Positions 62 through 62,499 of a stretch of 64,000 nucleotides of DNA are shown here, piece after piece. Under the pieces are notes generated by a model. It was not told where the DNA came from, did no database searches, and saw only the letters and a program-made list of their open reading frames with translations. Origin of the DNA: Echinostoma caproni. Its lineage: Eukaryota; Platyhelminthes; Trematoda; Plagiorchiida; Echinostomatidae. The DNA lies in assembly GCA_900618425.1 (NCBI GenBank), contig UZAN01039481.1:1-64000 (forward strand). The letters run 5' to 3'. Positions within the stretch are counted from its first letter, which is position 1. Every line of letters begins with the position of its first letter. Position numbers and translations under genes: made by a program.

Positions 62-239
62 CGTATGGTAGCATTTCGGGAGGTGTAAGGAATGGGTGAT
101 CAGCCGCAATGCTAGACTCCTACCCTCGACAATATTGATTTTTTGGAGAGGAATTTACTTTGACTGAATAATTAAACGTGTGACGATCCAAACACTCATC
201 ACAGAACACTTACACTGTTGACAATCTTTGCTATCTAGA

Positions 240-475
240 TGTTGTATTTTTGGATTGGCCAATGCGGTTTATCAGAGGCACCAGGAACGTTTGATGATTT
301 TAGTTTTGGGTTTCACTCCTTGGGAGACCGTTGATTTCCCGCTGTTTTTATGCATTAAAATGCGATAGAAATGTTTGCGGTAACCAACAAAGAGCACTGG
401 TCAGCTGTTTCGTCCTGTTTGGGACTCGTCAGCAGTGCGTACTTTTGTGTCCCTCTCTGGATTGAACAATTCACT
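240..475 (-). mobile_element. tRNA-headed SINE with hammerhead ribozyme, copy 1 (minus orientation)
   Basis: Read on the minus strand this is a short repeat: a degenerate Pol III B-box head near 475-455, a hammerhead fold at 438-394, then a 3' body down to about 240. The same body, including a run matching the 60540-60645 sequence, occurs in the copy at 60.4-60.6 kb, which defines the family. The organisation (tRNA-like head plus hammerhead in a non-autonomous repeat) is that known for schistosome Sm-alpha repeats; membership of the same family is inference. It lies head-to-head with a second monomer starting near 495. Confidence 0.7.
394..438 (-). ncRNA. hammerhead ribozyme (type I-like, one core change)
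   Basis: On the minus strand: stem I 5' strand GCACTG (438-433), core CTGACGA (432-426), stem II GTCC/GGAC with a six-base loop (425-412), GAAA (411-408), a one-pair stem III C407-G402 with loop AGCT, and stem I 3' strand CAGTGC (399-394). Stem I pairs perfectly. The position that should be U16.1 is A (401) followed by C400, so the A15.1-U16.1 pair is lost and self-cleavage is probably impaired. The one-pair stem III resembles hammerheads described in Penelope-like elements and retrozymes. Confidence 0.75.
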
Positions 476-494
476 CAAAGTGATAACTGTCAAC

Positions 495-632
495 CGTGTA
501 GCTCAATGGTAAGGGTTTCGAGGCCCATCGCGAAGAATCACGGTTCGAGTCCAGAGAGGGATGCAAAAAGTACGCAATGCTGACGAGTGCTCTTTGTTGG
601 TTATCACAAACATTTTCATCGCGTTTAAACCT
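495..632 (+). mobile_element. tRNA-headed SINE, copy 2 (plus, ribozyme deleted)
   Basis: A tRNA-like head has an A-box TAGCTCAATGG at 499-509 and a near-perfect B-box GGTTCGAGTCC at 542-552. The following sequence matches copy 1 (CAGAGAGGGA, then TACGCAATGCTGACGAG at 571-587), but most of the hammerhead, from stem II to stem I', is missing and the text jumps straight to TGCTCTTTGTTGG. The body then matches the minus copy to about 632. With copy 1 it forms a roughly 390-bp palindrome. Confidence 0.7.
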
Positions 633-1581
633 TTGCAATCTCTTGAGCATTCCAATACGAAAAATCATTATCGTGCTGACGGACGATCACCTTGTTAACA
701 GGTTGATTTGTCACCAATTAACTTTCAAGAAAAGTGAAAAATAAGGACTTTCTGACGTAACTAGAACTGGGTAATAACAGTTAAAGTGTTCCTGCTTGCA
801 GAAGATTTTTTTTGAGGAAAGACCTATGTGAAACATTTCCAGTTTTTCTTGACTGCATACTCATGGAACGTTTCCGGAACACTCTTTCTCAAAGCATACG
901 TTAGGATTTTTAAATAGAATTATAGGAGTAGCATGAAGTAGCACAAATCCCAGCTATTCAGCTTAAGATTACCCAGCTGCACAGTGACTGACAGGAATGG
1001 TTGCCAATTTCTAATGGTACATTACAAAAACCTTAGAAAAAATTGATGTTCACACTGTTTTCCCGCACCATCATTTACATTGGGGAGTTGTATAGATGTG
1101 TCCAAATTGGACTAATCATCCTGAAAAAAATTAATAAAACCTGGATCGTTGACTTCATCAGTAGTCTGGAGTCCTGGTCGTTAAAATTGCAACATTTGCT
1201 TTATTCGAACAAGTGAGTGATGCCTAAATTTCCAAGTTCAATGAACTACAAATTCTGAATTTTTGATGACATAAAAGTAATACGAATACACAATAGTTGA
1301 TTAAGTTATGCGTAAACCTGTGATAACGAATTTGTGATACTACAGAGAATATTGACTCCTTTTTCATCAGTCAATTTATTGCAACAACTCCGATGTCAAA
1401 GATTTAGAGTAAGATTAGGAGGAAGGTGTTGATGATTGACAATTAAACAATCCAATGTATTGTGGACAAATACAGTGGGCAACATGGAACTGTGCTCATG
1501 GTAGCATTCATATAATATACTTAATTGCATACGGTTTCAATGAAGACGGGCGGGCGGGGGGAGGGATTGAAACGCACTCAC
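633..1581. other. no feature recognised
   Basis: AT-rich sequence without a convincing frame. A GTGAGT after an open stretch at about 1140-1208 (+) has no acceptor in front of it. A G-rich run at 1548-1565 is listed separately. Confidence 0.5.
1548..1565 (+). other. G-quadruplex motif
   Basis: Four G runs of at least three bases (1548-1550, 1552-1554, 1556-1561, 1563-1565) are separated by single-base loops C, C and A. This fits the strict G4 pattern with one-base loops, which are the most stable kind in vitro. It lies 17 bp from a candidate splice donor of the exon at 1623-1582. Confidence 0.7.
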
Positions 1582-19355: not shown

Positions 19356-21290
19356 CTAATACGCGGTATTCGTTGTCGATTGATGTGCGGAGGAAGTAGC
19401 CCAGAATAAATCTGTCGTAATTAAGTGGCTTATAGATCTGCAGTCCTGAATTTCTGCCTTGATAAGCCAGAGACAGATTGTATTGTAATGTATTGCATTG
19501 TAATCAAGCTTTGGAGATTTATATACACAAGCTTTCAGCCAAAAAATAGACCACCGGTACAATTCCGGTAAAAACAGTGGGAAAAAGTGGGATGTGAAAA
19601 CGTACAAAGATATGAGTTAACCACCAAATGCATTTGAAAGCTCAGAACGAACACTTTCATTGTCGGTTAGTATCCGGGCAAGATAGGGTACCAAAGGGTT
19701 TCCGTATGCGGATATGCGAGACAGGATAAGTTTATACTTGTAACGGGTGGAGGGGTGGGATTCGCATGCACACAAGTCAGTGTGTGGAGGATGGCTGCAA
19801 TCATATAGGATAATGCCAACAAACTTTAAGCATGCATCAATATGGGCAATACACATACTGCCAATCAGAACAGATAACGGAACTTGGGAGACACGGCTGA
19901 TCATTGAGAGGCTACGCCTCAGCAACTTGAAATCAGCCTTCAACAAACCAAGGAAAAATTACAGGAAAGCAGTGAAAAAGTATAAGGAGGACACATTGTT
20001 GAACGAAAGTGTTTATCACCGACGAATCAGAACGGAATTGGAGCAGTCTTATTATCTGAAAAGCGAGCCTTTTAAAATTTCGAGCAATACTTTGGGTATG
20101 TAAGGACCAACGAAGGTTACTTTCAAGTGTGACATCTAAGTACTTCACATGGCTGACCCTGCTCATCGGCCCTCCATGATTCTGGACATTGACGGAGGGA
20201 GTTGGGGTGCAGTTTAGAGTAAAAATACATTCAAGGCATTTTCAGGATTAAGATTCAGACCGGAAGAAGTGGAATATGAAATAAGGTGGGATAGGTTTGT
20301 ATTATATTCAACCAGTTCTGATTGGTTAGATATGAAAACAGAAAGTTACTAATATAAGTCGAAAAAGATAAGGTGATAGGACAGCACCTTGAGATACAAA
20401 CGAGCTATTGAGTGATGCGATTAACTGTCTTCGTCCCAACTTAACATACTGATATCTTTGTGAAAAGTAATCTGCAAGCCACTTAAGAACAGAAGCCAAA
20501 CAGCCAAAAGATTGAAGCTTGTTAAGTAAAAGACAGCGGGGCACCGAGTCGAAAGCGGAGGAGTAGTCAAGGAATGCACAATGCACATGTTTAGCTTTCT
20601 CGTTAAGGGACTTATAGATGAAATAAACGGTATCTAGTGTAGAGCGGTTATGTTTGTATGCAAACTGATAAGTGTCATTGGGGGTGGTAGGAGATAACTG
20701 AAGACGGTGCAGAACTGATCCCTCCATCAATTTCAAACCAGTGGAGGTGAGAGCAATTGAACTGAAACGCTTCGCTATTGGAACCTTTGACGTTCCTTTT
20801 GGGATGGGAGTAATTCTCACTGGGCGCCAGCAGTCTGGAATAGTTCGGAGTTCGAGTGAAAGATTAGCTATGCGTGCGAAATTCTGAGACAGTGGCAGAG
20901 CATCGTGTTTAATAAGGATGAAACTTAAGTTGTTTGGACCAGGTGTGGTGGATACCTTGAGAGAACACGTGTTTATACATCTCACCAGAGGTGATGGGAT
21001 TAAACGAAGGTTGGATGCTTGGAGAACTGGAATCGGCATAACTGGGGCATTTGTGGGATGAAGAACGAATAAATGCATTGTTCAGTTTTTCAATATCGAT
21101 AGAGGGACTGGAAATCACTGTATTCTGCCTGCAGAGTAGATTGATTCCACGCCACACAGATTTACAGTTCGTCGTCCCAAAAAAATGATTTACATAAAGG
21201 GCGTCCAACGGTCTTATTTCACTCTTGATCAGGAACGATAAGAAAAGGAGGTTCATTGCACGCATTAGACAAGGTTGTTTTGAGCACCCA
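19356..21290 (-). mobile_element. CR1/jockey-like non-LTR retrotransposon, 5' truncated
   Basis: The minus strand contains a linker (21265-20909), then a reverse transcriptase frame of 250 codons (21078-20326) with finger motif DCWRPVRITPIPK, palm motif A FLDYSSAFDSVPR and motif B SQGAVLSPYLF. A frame change precedes the C-terminal domain, which includes YLDVTLESNLRWS (about 20.14 kb) and YLARILTDNESVRSEL (ending 19617). An AT-rich 3' region with ACAATACAAT-type repeats follows to about 19.36 kb. The endonuclease is absent, the usual 5' truncation of such elements. At least two frameshifts make it inactive. Confidence 0.85.
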
Positions 21291-52138: not shown

Positions 52139-52291
52139 ATTTCATGGCGTGAAACATTAGTAAACGAATTTCCATGACAAAGAAAAGTTTTGTTTTTAAT
52201 ACCGACTTGTCTTATTGTTATCTCTTGAGAACAGCCGGTATAGGAATGATAACATTAATATCAGAAACCAAAGTTAATTATTGAATGTGCA

Positions 52292-53390
52292 ATGCAACAC
52301 CCAATTTGCAGGAAAGACGTTACGGATCACCTATGGGTGCTTGAAGGGTGTAATGACACGCTACCTCTTGATCGCTTTCATACATGCATTCCACTAGGAC
52401 TCAAAATGACGGAGACCAACATCATCAGTCAAACACAGTTATATAAAAGATATGCTGACGATATTCTTGCAATCAGCAACTCTGAACAAGACTATGTCAA
52501 CTTCTTTCACGAACGCAATGCCGTCCATAGAACTATAAACCTTTCCACCGTGCACGAGCGTAACAACGGCTTGCATTTTTGGATTTGCTNATAACCAGAC
52601 GTTCAGAGAGCATTAAGCTCCGGTTTGTATACGGTACACATACGTGGTCGGGCCAGTACTTACGCTTCACTAGCTTTAAAACACTGAGATACAAACGTGG
52701 CTCAGCGAAAACGATGTACGATAGAGCCCGTCGATTGTGTGCACCTGACAATCTAAGCGGTGAGATGAAGCCACTAAACAAAATGTTTCAGTCCAACTGC
52801 TACCGAACGCCGTTTGTAAAATGATATTGCACTGTACACGATCCAAAACAACTAACAATATCTGTCCCGAAATGCAACGTTTTCTTGCAGCTGCCATTCA
52901 AGGGCGATGATCTCATCGAGCTGTTTGCAAGCCGCCTCAAATCGGCAATCCAACAGTCATACCATGTCGCCGACACTGTCCTACTTCACACATGCCGACA
53001 ACTACCCGTCCTCCCAGACAAGCGGCCGTTACCATTTCACACCACATCATACCTCACGCCAGTTCAAGTGTGGGTGCTTGGTCACTTACCTAGGCCAAAC
53101 TGGATGGCAACCTCGACTGAGAGTGACTGAACATGACCCAGGGGGGCTGGATACTTTTGTCAACCAATAAAAAGTCGGTCAAAAGTCACCGGTCAAATAG
53201 ACACCAGCCTGTTCCATAGCACACCATTTGCTTGAGACAAAGCATCGGTTCGACCGACTTACTGCGTTCTCCGTGATCGTACCCAACACCAATAAACGTT
53301 CATTGCAGTTTACTGTTCAATTGCGATTCAAAGATCGTTACCTGGGCTCTGCCTTGGTAGAAACCATGAGAGCTATGAACTGATTAATGA
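52292..53390 (+). mobile_element. Penelope-like element J (RT palm to GIY-YIG)
   Basis: Plus-strand pieces in order: RT catalytic block LYKRYADDILAISNSEQDYVN (about 52.44-52.5 kb), HERNNGLHFWI and TRRSESIKL. Next are the post-RT domain TWSGQYLRFTSFKTLRYKRGS with ARRLCAPDNLSGEM and CYRTPFV (52.6-52.82 kb), and LPFKGDDLIELFASRLKSAI (about 52.89 kb). Last come the GIY-YIG block FKCGCLVTYLGQTGWQPRLR with VTEHD (about 53.06-53.13 kb) and SIAHHLLETKHRFDRLTAFS to a stop at 53381. The domain order and residues are those of endonuclease-bearing Penelope-like elements. It is frameshifted in at least four places, with one N at 52590. Confidence 0.85.
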
Positions 53391-53521
53391 TAACTTCTAT
53401 CAATTTATTGTGATCATGTATATTATGTAATCTGTAGTATGCACCTAATGAGATACAGCGAAGTATATCCGGATAGAAATTGTGCAATGTAACTGTACTG
53501 TAATCTCTTTTCAAATTTTAG

Positions 53522-57322: not shown

Positions 57323-57774
57323 ATCTGTCGTCTACCACCTTATATGAATATCTTTGATAGGGCACCTATCAGTGATATTTAAACTTAGGTCCAACCAATC
57401 TGAACTTTGATCCGTCAAATACGGGACTTGTTTAGTAATATAGTTCTAGTAAACGCCTCTTAGTGAGTTGAAAAGAACAAATTTTCATGTTTAGAGCAAC
57501 TGTAGCACAAAATAAAAAGCTTGGAAGCACCGTACAGCTGTTTTGACATATTTGGGTCTCAAAAGCAGTCCCGATTGATCGACACAACTAAAGATGGAAC
57601 TCCAGACCCCGAAGATGGCACACAAACGTACTACCTACTCCATCACGCCTTGATCATGTAACAGGCATCATGGTCGGAATGTTTTAAACCGAACAATGAC
57701 CCTGGAGACGGTAGCTCAGATAGGAGAAATGTGGCACAAAGCTCACAAAAATGGGTTATATTATCTCGTGTAAA

Positions 57775-60300: not shown

Positions 60301-60418
60301 ATAAGTGATTCGTTTGCGATGGAAATGTTTGCGATAACCAAGAAAGAGCACTGGACAGCTGGTTCATCCTGTTTGGGTATCTTTTGTGTCCCTCTCAGGA
60401 CTGAAAACGCGGTTCTTC
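60301..60418 (-). mobile_element. hammerhead SINE copy 3 (minus, ribozyme damaged)
   Basis: Reverse-orientation monomer. On the minus strand CCCAAACAGGATGAACCAGCTGTCC is followed by the stem I' block and AACATTTCCATCGC. The CTGACGA core and stem I 5' strand are deleted and GAAAC is changed to GAACC, so there is no ribozyme. Head-to-head with copy 4. Confidence 0.7.
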
Positions 60419-60645
60419 GGGCTGGGGCTGATAGGGAGTACGCACTGCTGACGAGTCCCAAACAAGACGAAACAGCTGTCCAGTGCTCTTTGCTCGTTAT
60501 CGCAAACATTTCCATCGCATTAAAATGCATAAAAACAGTGGGGAATGAACGATCTCCCAAGGAGTGAAAACCACATCCAACATCATCAACAGTGCCTGGT
60601 GCCTGTGAAAAACCGAATGGGCTAATCCAAACATTCATCATGTAA
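60419..60645 (+). mobile_element. hammerhead SINE copy 4 (plus)
   Basis: Plus-orientation monomer with a hammerhead at 60442-60486, then a body matching copy 1's body for about 150 bp (GCAAACATTTCCATCGCATT, GATCTCCCAAGGAGTGAAA, GTGCCTGGTGCCTGTGA) and ending near 60645. The tRNA-like head is largely lost at the palindrome centre. This copy best defines the family's 3' body. Confidence 0.75.
60442..60486 (+). ncRNA. hammerhead ribozyme, all core positions present
   Basis: Stem I GCACTG (60442-60447) pairs perfectly with CAGTGC (60481-60486). The core is CTGACGA (60448-60454), stem II is GTC/GAC with an eight-base loop (60455-60468, outer pairs only after C-A mismatches), and GAAA is at 60469-60472. 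Stem III is one pair (C60473-G60478) with loop AGCT. U16.1 is 60479 and the cleavage-site C17 is 60480. Outside stem I an internal loop (TAC / TCTTTG) and a GAG/CTC pair extend the helix, giving the loop needed for a tertiary contact with loop II. This is a type I fold with minimal stem III. Activity is inferred from the fold only. Confidence 0.8.
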
Positions 60646-62499
60646 GGCGATTAGTTTGTATTTTTATTTTATGTTCTCTTTCTTGTTTTTAAGCGGAGGC
60701 AATGAACAGTTACTCTTGTTGTAGCTGCCTCTATGGGCACTAAGCCTGTTTAGCTCATCTGTGGTGAAAAGTAATATTGTTCGCGAGTATTGATCAGGTG
60801 CGTAGCGCTGCGTCAGCGGGGGGAGGGCGTGACTTAACCTACATCGGATGATCTACCACTGATTGCATGAATGGGTATATTTATATATGAATGTAAGTGG
60901 TTAACTTGCTTCACATTTGCATTTAGGGTAGATAGTATTTTCATTCACTAAGTGCGATGATTTGTAACCTACTTCCGGATATGTAGTTCTCCTAACCCAG
61001 TGACGGGTTTTTTTACGAGCCTTAATCAGTGTCNATCAGTGTCGTAGGCGAAAGCGAATTCTGTGTGTTTTAAGGACACGCTGCACTTTTCCGGAAAACA
61101 TCCAACAATCTGATACCAGCCACAAGCAACTAATGACAAAATGAAACTTATGAAATCATTCAAATAGCTATCCTGCTGATTTGGTTGCAAAATTATACTG
61201 AGATGCGTTCTGTAGACGCTATGGTTATTTTACCGGCCGAAGGCTGAATAATATTCCGCAAATCTACTGTGATTCACTGAAAACAGTGCAAAGTGACTGA
61301 TGATACATATTCGAGTGGAAATGTGGTGTGCAAATCCCTAAAGGAACACATTCATAAGTATGTATTTGAAATGGATTGTTTCTCGCAAGTAACATCTTGA
61401 TAACTGTCACTGGCATGGGCTATATTTTCGTAACTCTTGTACTACAAAATACAGGATATGGGATGATAGCATTTAGCCTACGGGTACTTACGAAGACCAG
61501 TCAAAACAAAATTTCAGGAAACGGAAGGCTTGTTTATTTTGTTGATTGAAATACTAAAGCAGCTTTAGCTTTTATGTTTCCCAGTACTCAATATTCGCCA
61601 CTAATTNCTAATTAAACTTTAGTGGAATATATTGATTTTAAATCGGCTCGGTTCTCAGATGATTTCAAAGGGAAACGCTAGTAATCAACAAGAAAAAGCT
61701 AGCATAGTTGCTCAGTTTAACTTGACTGTGGAAAGATGAAATTTTAGGCATATCCACGAGTCGAAGCTTACAAACAAAACCAAATAGGATATTATCTGTG
61801 AAAATGGAATTTTTAAGTGTTTTCCCTCCAACCGATAGAAGCGCGCTCAAACCGGTAATTGAAACTGCATTGTTGAATTTACATAATTTCATATTTCTAC
61901 ATTCTACAAACGTACTTGAACAACGTCATGCAGGTGAGGTGCCGTATCTTCATAAGTAAATGCCAAGTTATCAATACCGTTTGGGCTTCCTACACGCGGT
62001 TAACGTGATTTGGTTCTAGACTGATTAAAAGTGTTACACACGAAAATGCGTACAGCTTGGAATCTGCACAGGGTTTTGAGTTGATTAAATACAATCACTG
62101 AAAACATCAATGATATCTACCAATCAACTATTTACTATTGGTTAACTTTAATTTAACATAATTTGCGCTGCCATACTATGTTCAGTTTCTTCATTCGAAG
62201 TTTTAAACTTTCTAGTCCTATGAATAATGCATTGATTGAAGAAATTCAAATATATTATATTCGTAATAAACTTATGTTTTGAAAGTGCATTCAAAAAAGG
62301 TAGATGTGGAGATCCTCGTTCTGTCAACATCAGATTCATTTGCTCTGTAGGGGCTTTCACTCTTAAAGAAAACATAAAAAACGAAAAGAAGATCAGTGAC
62401 TCCAATGAATATCTAATGGTTGCTGTAAGAGTTAAAATATCTATCGCATTCCAACGAGCATGGATAAAATCACCTCGCCGTAATTCAACAAAAAGGAAG
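60646..62499. other. no gene recognised
   Basis: Contains a local duplication around an N at 61034 (see findings) and another N at 61607. A plus frame at 62236-62592 and the antisense frame below overlap; neither is proven. Confidence 0.4.

What the first reader, a model, noticed from the sequence alone, without database searches (positions are those of the whole stretch)
60442..60486. Near-intact hammerhead ribozyme in a short dispersed repeat
All invariant core positions (CTGANGA, GAAA, U16.1, C17) and a perfect six-pair stem I are present, with a one-pair stem III. The host repeat has a tRNA-like head in a sister copy (495-560), matching the architecture of schistosome Sm-alpha repeats but with the minimal stem III known from Penelope-like elements. 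That combination may be an undescribed bridge between the two groups.
Basis: partly seen in the sequence, partly recalled or inferred. Interest (0 to 1): 0.9.

Follow-up and report, generated by a model that had tools for sequence, protein, structure and literature searches.

The report
Hammerhead SINEs with Penelope integration marks
A short self-cutting RNA element that is common in this flatworm-like genome is real, and its inserted copies carry an unusual two-ended insertion pattern otherwise described for Penelope retrotransposons, which suggests what may copy these elements around animal genomes.

Summary
The hammerhead at 60442-60486 is real (Rfam type I, 53.2 bits, E 4.8e-11), with one flaw: a C-A mismatch in stem II. 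It sits in a ~321-bp tRNA-headed repeat, an Sm-alpha-like retrozyme/SINE, in a trematode-like genome. A different link appeared. In a ribozyme-selected sample, 49 of 49 composite copies are head-to-head inverted with 3' sides outward, each with its own inner junction; 36 have one outer end at site S and the other at L, none S+S or L+L. A second sample gave 12 S+L and 2 L+L. About 13-bp target duplications flank many (11 of 49 against 4 of 2352 controls). A second hammerhead SINE family and two of the genome's own Penelope-like elements (PLEs) show the same anatomy. That is the published PLE insertion signature. Best reading: PLE machinery inserts these retrozymes by priming on both DNA strands. 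PLEs were already proposed as movers; I found no structural evidence of this kind in the held papers.

The parts
60442..60486 (+). Type I hammerhead ribozyme (cut predicted after 60480)
   Evidence: Rfam RF00163 53.2 bits, E 4.8e-11; C-A mismatch at 60458/60465
60437..60645 (+). Direct arm of the SINE insertion (unit u110-318), outer end at site L
   Evidence: mapping to the unit consensus
60315..60429 (-). Inverted arm of the same insertion (unit u192 to u62), outer end at site S; ribozyme core broken
   Evidence: mapping; sequence
60305..60316 (+). Left copy of a possible target-site duplication (GTGATTCGTTTG), 10 of 12 equal to the right copy
   Evidence: read; score 7 and below 8, not significant alone
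60647..60658 (+). Right copy of that possible duplication (GCGATTAGTTTG)
   Evidence: read; as above
394..438 (-). Second hammerhead, U16.1 replaced by A
   Evidence: Rfam 47.3 bits
233..461 (-). Inverted arm of the sister insertion, outer end at L
460..629 (+). Direct arm of the sister insertion with tRNA-like head, outer end at S
499..552 (+). tRNA-like head: A box 499-509 and B box 542-552
   Evidence: sequence; no tRNA called by ARAGORN
223..236 (+). Left copy of a possible target duplication AATCTTTGCTATCT (12 of 14)
   Evidence: score 8 (2.85% of controls reach 8)
628..641 (+). Right copy AACCTTTGCAATCT
52259..53515 (+). Decayed Penelope-like element with 3' pseudo-LTR, ending at its S-type end CTCTTTTCAAA
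   Evidence: similarity to PLE ORFs of this genome, 3' motif

Best explanation
The feature is a hammerhead of a non-autonomous retrozyme/SINE family of the Sm-alpha kind. Its RNA (tRNA-like head, hammerhead, body) is multimeric or circular when copied (inferred). A Penelope-like RT-endonuclease cuts both strands of a target and primes reverse transcription from both cut ends, one starting at internal site S and the other at internal site L. The two cDNAs meet at a variable place and are joined, leaving a head-to-head inverted insertion with 3' sides outward, one S end, one L end and a ~13-bp target duplication. The hammerhead would cut transcripts to make unit-length or circular RNA; its nearness to S may also help to place the RT. 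Shown here: the anatomy, in two SINE families and in two PLE copies. Inferred: the enzyme, the circles, cleavage in vivo.
For: In 76 sources (74 loci plus two window pieces), 85 element groups: 47 '-+', 2 '--+', 18 '+', 18 '-', 0 '+-'. Of the 49 composites, 36 S+L, 0 S+S, 0 L+L, 13 with at least one unclassified end (32 to 37 S+L, still 0 S+S and 0 L+L, with narrower or wider end windows); 49 of 49 inner junctions differ. Of 16 S-ended single arms, 10 hide a short reverse L piece (score >=10; 4.1% of 218 control pieces). Target duplications: 11 of 49 at score >=10 against 4 of 2352 mismatched flank pairs; median 13 bp for the 12 at score >=9. Second sample, not chosen by ribozyme score: 20 '-+', 1 '-+-+', 12 '+', 8 '-' of 41 groups on 40 contigs; ends of the 20: 12 S+L. 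Second family: 13 '-|+', 2 '+|+', 1 '-|-' of 16 close pairs; four copies read by eye are S+L with duplications (L097, L099, L102, L028). PLEs of the same genome: L077 and L093 are '-+', S+L, with duplications 9/10 and 11/11 read by eye. Published PLE anatomy agrees: adjacent inverted pLTR, 31-bp tail optional at one of the inverted pLTRs, 8-10-bp duplications (PMC3846280 passages); a purified PLE cuts and extends both strands and starts RT at two internal sites that bound the tail, a signature its abstract calls unique to PLEs (PMC11167929). Inverted pairs of >=40 bp involve the SINE in 35 of 74 loci (23.7 kb of SINE) and lie outside it in 8 loci (about 194 kb).
Against: In the second sample 2 of 20 composites look L+L and 6 have one unclassified end; its '-+-+' array holds one '+-' step. 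One single arm of the first sample (L067, L-ended) has a possible second L piece, so may be L+L (score 13). Of 11 L-ended single arms none shows an S piece (2 of the 11 cannot be judged: contig start, N), so part of the copies may be one-sided. S and L lie 122 nt apart in this family, but 27 nt in the three PLE ends with a tail and about 25-31 nt in the second family. SINE and PLE ends share no clear sequence: the unit finds no PLE end by BLAST. Only two PLE copies were decidable at both ends. Rfam finds no hammerhead in 10 PLE loci even at E<=5; the PLE core CTGATGA..GAAA was read by eye in one copy (L077) and is degraded in others. Pfam reports RT but no GIY-YIG domain in the best ORF; that motif was read by eye from recall. 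cDNA inner ends do not cluster at the hammerhead cut (2 of 136 in u151-160).
Confidence: 0.74

Rival explanations
1. Ordinary LINE-driven SINE with twin priming: a LINE enzyme primes at the RNA 3' end and a second time inside, giving 5'-inverted copies.
For: Twin priming gives inverted, truncated copies flanked by target duplications (start of the abstract of PMC2837659 in the listing). A non-LTR RT fragment is in the window (20326-21081, RVT_1 E 8.1e-18). One-armed L copies without S exist.
Against: The second priming site is fixed at S: 36 of 36 composites with both ends classified are S+L in the first sample. No poly-A or simple 3' tail was seen at L. L is internal, since 54 of 136 segments run through it. 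LINE copies of this genome were not examined as a control.
Confidence: 0.13
2. Fold-back self-priming or an inverted master copy: the cDNA (or an antisense template) snaps back on itself, or one inverted locus is copied many times.
For: PMC3846280 passages propose self-priming for PLE inverted repeats with palindromes at the junction.
Against: 49 of 49 junctions differ, against one master. Snap-back would give equal unit positions on both sides; 1 of 49 junctions has them within 10 nt and 5 of 49 within 20. It does not explain the S+L rule.
Confidence: 0.06
3. A foldback or MITE-like DNA transposon with terminal inverted repeats that happens to hold a hammerhead.
For: Elements end in inverted arms and many have target duplications.
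Against: The two termini are different sites (S and L), arm pieces run from 28 to 431 nt, and the centre is different in every copy. No transposase was sought.
Confidence: 0.02
4. Plain new copy of a known Sm-alpha-like SINE; the inversion pattern is incidental or an assembly effect.
For: Hammerhead and tRNA-like head match the published Sm-alpha description (PMC2770079, PMC4918200 passages).
Against: The pattern holds over dozens of contigs and two families with target duplications, while flanks rarely hold inverted pairs.
Confidence: 0.05

Closest known systems
Schistosome Sm-alpha / Sj-alpha SINE-like elements
   Same: Type I hammerhead with nearly the stem II and loop of the Rfam consensus (GUCCCAAAYAGGAC), tRNA-related part, unit near 335 bp, high copy number (PMC2770079, PMC8490949, PMC4918200 passages).
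   Different: Stem I sequence differs and is re-paired. Similarity outside the ribozyme could not be tested. The S+L inverted anatomy is not in the passages I read; the primary Sm-alpha paper (Ferbeyre 1998) is not held.
Metazoan non-LTR retrozymes
   Same: Non-coding, type I hammerhead, unit of ~170-400 nt, target duplications longer than 4 bp, copies that run through the unit boundary (PMC7229834).
   Different: No arrays of two or more units among 136 segments (longest 441 nt); copies are head-to-head inverted instead.
Penelope-like elements (PLEs)
   Same: Head-to-head inverted insertion, two alternative 3' ends with a tail at one of them, target duplication, hammerhead or its remains just upstream of the ends (PMC3846280, PMC11167929; own PLEs).
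   Different: No reverse transcriptase or endonuclease; has a tRNA-like head; in this family S and L are 122 nt apart instead of about 30.

Membership tests
Hammerhead ribozyme, type I (RF00163) | Score at or above the Rfam gathering cut-off | tested here: met
   53.2 and 47.3 bits against 34
Hammerhead ribozyme, type I (RF00163) | Intact core and pairing kept through changes | tested here: met
   core intact at 60442-60486; on 36 hand-chosen copies 96.5% of cells paired and 10 cells with two-sided changes, 8 of them one event
Hammerhead ribozyme, type I (RF00163) | Self-cleavage | not testable with these tools
   needs an assay
Sm-alpha-like SINE | tRNA-related head with pol III boxes | tested here: inconclusive
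   A and B boxes in the sister copy; the A..B pattern used matches in 13 of 76 sources; no tRNA called by ARAGORN in the window or by cmscan in 5 family-1 and 6 family-2 loci
Sm-alpha-like SINE | Sequence homology to Sm-alpha outside the ribozyme | not tested
   no Schistosoma genome was available
Metazoan non-LTR retrozyme | Non-coding unit of ~170-400 nt with type I hammerhead | tested here: met
   321-bp unit
Metazoan non-LTR retrozyme | Tandem dimers to multimers in the genome | tested here: not met
   longest of 136 segments is 441 nt; unit boundary crossed in 54 of 136; only copies near 74 hammerheads were seen
Metazoan non-LTR retrozyme | Circular RNA in cells | not testable with these tools
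   no RNA data
Penelope-like element | Own RT (with GIY-YIG endonuclease in animal PLEs) | tested here: not met
   unit of 321 bp, too short for such a gene
Penelope-like element | Insertion signature: head-to-head inversion, tail at one end, target duplication | tested here: met
   second family; S-L distance in family 1 is 122 nt, not about 30

The most novel reading that the evidence does not exclude
The hammerhead is the shared landmark that the Penelope RT reads. In this genome's PLEs the S end lies 52-56 nt downstream of the start of GAAA (9 of 9 ends measured, some degraded), and 57 nt in this SINE (77 in the second family). PLE enzymes would dock on the hammerhead fold, start at two fixed internal sites and insert by obligatory two-ended priming, so that any circular RNA with a hammerhead followed by an S/L pair becomes a passenger. 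This would explain why PLEs and animal retrozymes share the ribozyme.
Probability: 0.27. Interest if true: 0.88.

Novelty: new variant of a known kind. Interest (0 to 1): 0.72.

Why it matters
Which enzyme moves animal retrozymes is open: a 2020 review says that their repeats show no conserved motif that could tell the autonomous partner (PMC7761336 passage), and names PLEs as likely because both carry type I hammerheads and co-occur. The S+L inverted signature is such a mark, can be counted in any genome, and makes the idea testable with a purified PLE enzyme. It also gives many frozen products of PLE insertion, a poorly understood reaction.

Tried and rejected
Stem III as a Penelope mark: rejected, since a short palindromic stem III is found in other type I hammerheads. 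A single inverted master element: rejected, because all 49 junctions differ. Shared end sequence between SINE and PLE: sought by BLAST, not found; the two hits with E below 1e-5 in PLE loci were a SINE copy in L084 and a 47-bp hammerhead-like stretch in L078 that I did not follow. Rfam hammerhead in PLE loci: none at E<=5 in 10 loci. A COX1 search to name it did not complete.

Limits of counts: the 74 loci were chosen by ribozyme score. Segments count as one element if no more than 40 bases apart (70). The second sample used a query that ends at L, so it favours copies with an L end; 4 of its 40 contigs are also in the first sample, and 2 of its 12 S+L copies (C562, C1100). Only 40 first-look candidates were scored in each DNA search (of 4467, of 4567). 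For one search I used 55 of the 98 matches and left out 43 short ones (under 45 bases). The six family-2 loci were picked because they showed a '-|+' pair. For one search I chose 36 hammerheads by hand (28 of family 1, 8 of family 2) and left out more damaged ones; one search had found 99 hammerhead-like stretches. S and L ends and duplications of family 2 and of the PLEs were read by eye.

Full report
1. The observation. Rfam's type I hammerhead model hits exactly 60442-60486 (+) with 53.2 bits (cut-off 34, E 4.8e-11 for the window), so chance is excluded. Stem I is 6/6, CTGACGA, GAAA, U16.1 and C17 are intact, and the cut is predicted after 60480. One flaw: A at 60465 makes one pair of stem II C-A. 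A second hammerhead at 394-438 (-) scores 47.3 bits but has lost U16.1. The tRNA-like head of the sister copy has an A box (499-509) and a B box (542-552) by reading; ARAGORN finds no tRNA in the window.

2. The genome. The window is part of an unnamed 426.5-Mb assembly in 12,689 contigs. A PLE ORF of the genome (L095) is 83% identical over 44% of its length to an Echinostoma caproni protein and up to 64% to Fasciola hepatica proteins, so a digenean trematode is likely. The species was not identified.

3. The element. A search of the genome with RF00163 scored 74 of 66,429 first-look candidates, all over the cut-off; the window's own two copies are not among the 74, so the list is incomplete. 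I fetched all 74 with flanks. They define a 321-nt unit: tRNA-like head, hammerhead at u115-159, body to u321. The consensus ribozyme is GCACTG-CTGACGA-GTCC-CAAACA-GGAC-GAAA-CAGCTG-TC-CAGTGC. On 36 hand-chosen copies 96.5% of pair cells are standard, and there are 10 cells with two-sided changes; 8 of these are one event, U-A to A-U, in the second family.

4. How copies are built. Mapping 76 sources gave 85 element groups: 47 '-+', 2 '--+', 18 '+', 18 '-', and no '+-'. So the two-armed copies of this sample have their 3' sides outward. Outer ends fall at two places: S, about u180-210 (...CATCGCATTTAAA), and L, about u296-321 (...CATCTAAATT, or ...GATACTCTAAA in a subfamily). Of 49 composites, 36 are S+L, 6 are S plus unclassified, 6 are L plus unclassified, 1 has neither; none is S+S or L+L, and this stays so with narrower or wider end windows, 32 to 37 S+L. 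All 49 inner junctions differ; 1 has both sides within 10 nt of the same unit position, 5 within 20. Of 16 one-armed copies ending at S, 10 hide a short reverse L piece at their 5' side (4.1% of 218 control pieces do); of 11 ending at L, none shows an S piece (two cannot be judged), and one, L067, may hide a second L. L may therefore be the first site used, and some copies may be one-sided.

5. Target duplications. At the called ends 11 of 49 composites have a flank match of score >=10 against 4 of 2352 mismatched pairs; the 12 at score >=9 have a median length of 13 bp. A wider first scan gave 11 of 49 against 0.26%. The two window copies have weak, diverged matches (12 of 14 letters, score 8; 10 of 12 letters, score 7) that mean little alone.

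6. Second sample. A DNA search with the unit of L018, independent of ribozyme score but ending at L, scored 40 of 4467 candidates: 20 '-+', 1 '-+-+', 12 '+', 8 '-'; ends of the 20: 12 S+L, 6 L plus unclassified, 2 L+L (C2869, C3830). The two L+L cases are exceptions to the rule, and the '-+-+' array (C2578) holds one '+-' step.

7. A second family. L028 and L048 led to another hammerhead SINE with a different tRNA-like head. A DNA search scored 40 of 4567 candidates; of 16 close pairs 13 are '-|+', 2 '+|+', 1 '-|-'. In six loci fetched because they showed '-|+', all six have two opposed hammerheads over the cut-off, 39.9 to 49.9 bits. S is ...CATTTGAAA, and L lies about 25-31 nt further. S+L with duplications, read by eye: L097 AACTCTGCAATT (12/12), L102 ACACCTCAAATT (12/12), L099 (11/12), L028 (10/11); L098 has one L end and one longer end; L100 and L101 are cut by a contig end or N.

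8. The genome's Penelope-like elements. The window piece 52259-52588 gave 86 matches, itself included, with 150 of 541 candidates scored. Their 3' ends, where seen, stop at ...CTCTGTTCAAA or variants (S-like) or 27 nt further at ...TTGTTTCAAA or variants (L-like; three ends measured, L077, L089, L093). L077 and L093 are '-+' with one of each and duplications GGAAGTATTG/GGAAGTAGTG and ATGGGCAGAAC twice. L079, L082 and L090 also hold inverted arms, but their ends were not decidable. The GAAA-to-S distance is 52-56 nt in 9 of 9 measured ends (found with up to 3 mismatches), 57 in this SINE and 77 in family 2. Rfam sees no hammerhead in 10 PLE loci at E<=5, and Pfam names RT only.

9. Literature. 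PMC3846280 (passages) describes an adjacent inverted pLTR, a 31-bp tail optionally at one of the inverted pLTRs, head-to-head as the most frequent arrangement, and 8-10-bp duplications. PMC11167929 (first two of four parts; passages) shows that a purified anole PLE cuts and extends both strands and starts RT at two internal sites that match the tail ends. PMC7229834 (three of six parts; passages) and PMC7761336 (passages) propose PLEs as movers of animal retrozymes because both carry type I hammerheads and co-occur (the former also cites tandem copies); the latter says no motif reveals the partner. PMC11722881 (passages) repeats the proposal. Searches of the held library (listings of the best 4 to 30 papers each) showed no report of the S+L signature on retrozymes or SINEs; most subscription papers are not held, and three primary papers on Sm-alpha and PLE hammerheads could not be read.

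10. Mechanism. Two-ended, internally primed insertion by PLE enzyme explains in one step the inversion, the two fixed ends, the varied joins and the duplication. Segments run through the unit boundary in 54 of 136 cases though no array of two units was seen, so the template is circular or multimeric; circles are the likelier source (inference). No clustering of cDNA ends at the ribozyme cut (2 of 136 in u151-160) speaks against cut linear monomers as template, though loci were chosen for an intact ribozyme. Clusters at u81-91 and u250-258 remain unexplained, the latter partly an alignment effect. LINE copies of this genome were not examined as a control.

11. Verdict. A real hammerhead in a known kind of host element, but the element carries a Penelope insertion signature. 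New variant of a known kind; interest 0.72.

Noticed in passing
window 394-438 (-): Second hammerhead in the sister copy, core otherwise intact but U16.1 is A; the direct arm near 573-600 (+) has a hammerhead with an internal deletion.
   Followed up: yes
window 57526-57569 (-): A 44-base stretch 77% alike to the hammerhead (E 5.5e-4), perhaps an older relic.
   Followed up: no
window 52259-53515 (+): Decayed Penelope-like element with its 3' pseudo-LTR end, so the SINE and a relative of its putative mover lie in one window.
   Followed up: partly
window 20326-21081 (-): Non-LTR reverse transcriptase fragment (RVT_1, E 8.1e-18), nearest organism-named relatives in Trichobilharzia.
   Followed up: partly
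L097-L102, L028:360-760, L048:1-310: Second hammerhead SINE family with another tRNA-like head; several copies look nearly identical by eye, with two opposed ribozymes per insertion.
   Followed up: partly
family-1 unit u81-91 and u250-258 (all loci): Inner cDNA ends cluster in the T-loop of the tRNA-like head and near GACCATCAAGAG; could be RT stops or RNA ends.
   Followed up: no
G000:C2578:18883-19597: A '-+-+' array of family 1, perhaps two insertions side by side.
   Followed up: no
L071:973-1108: A 136-bp nearly perfect palindrome (98.5%) outside the SINE.
   Followed up: no
L078:1885-1931 (-): Hammerhead-like 47-bp stretch (81% to the SINE ribozyme) within a PLE locus.
   Followed up: no
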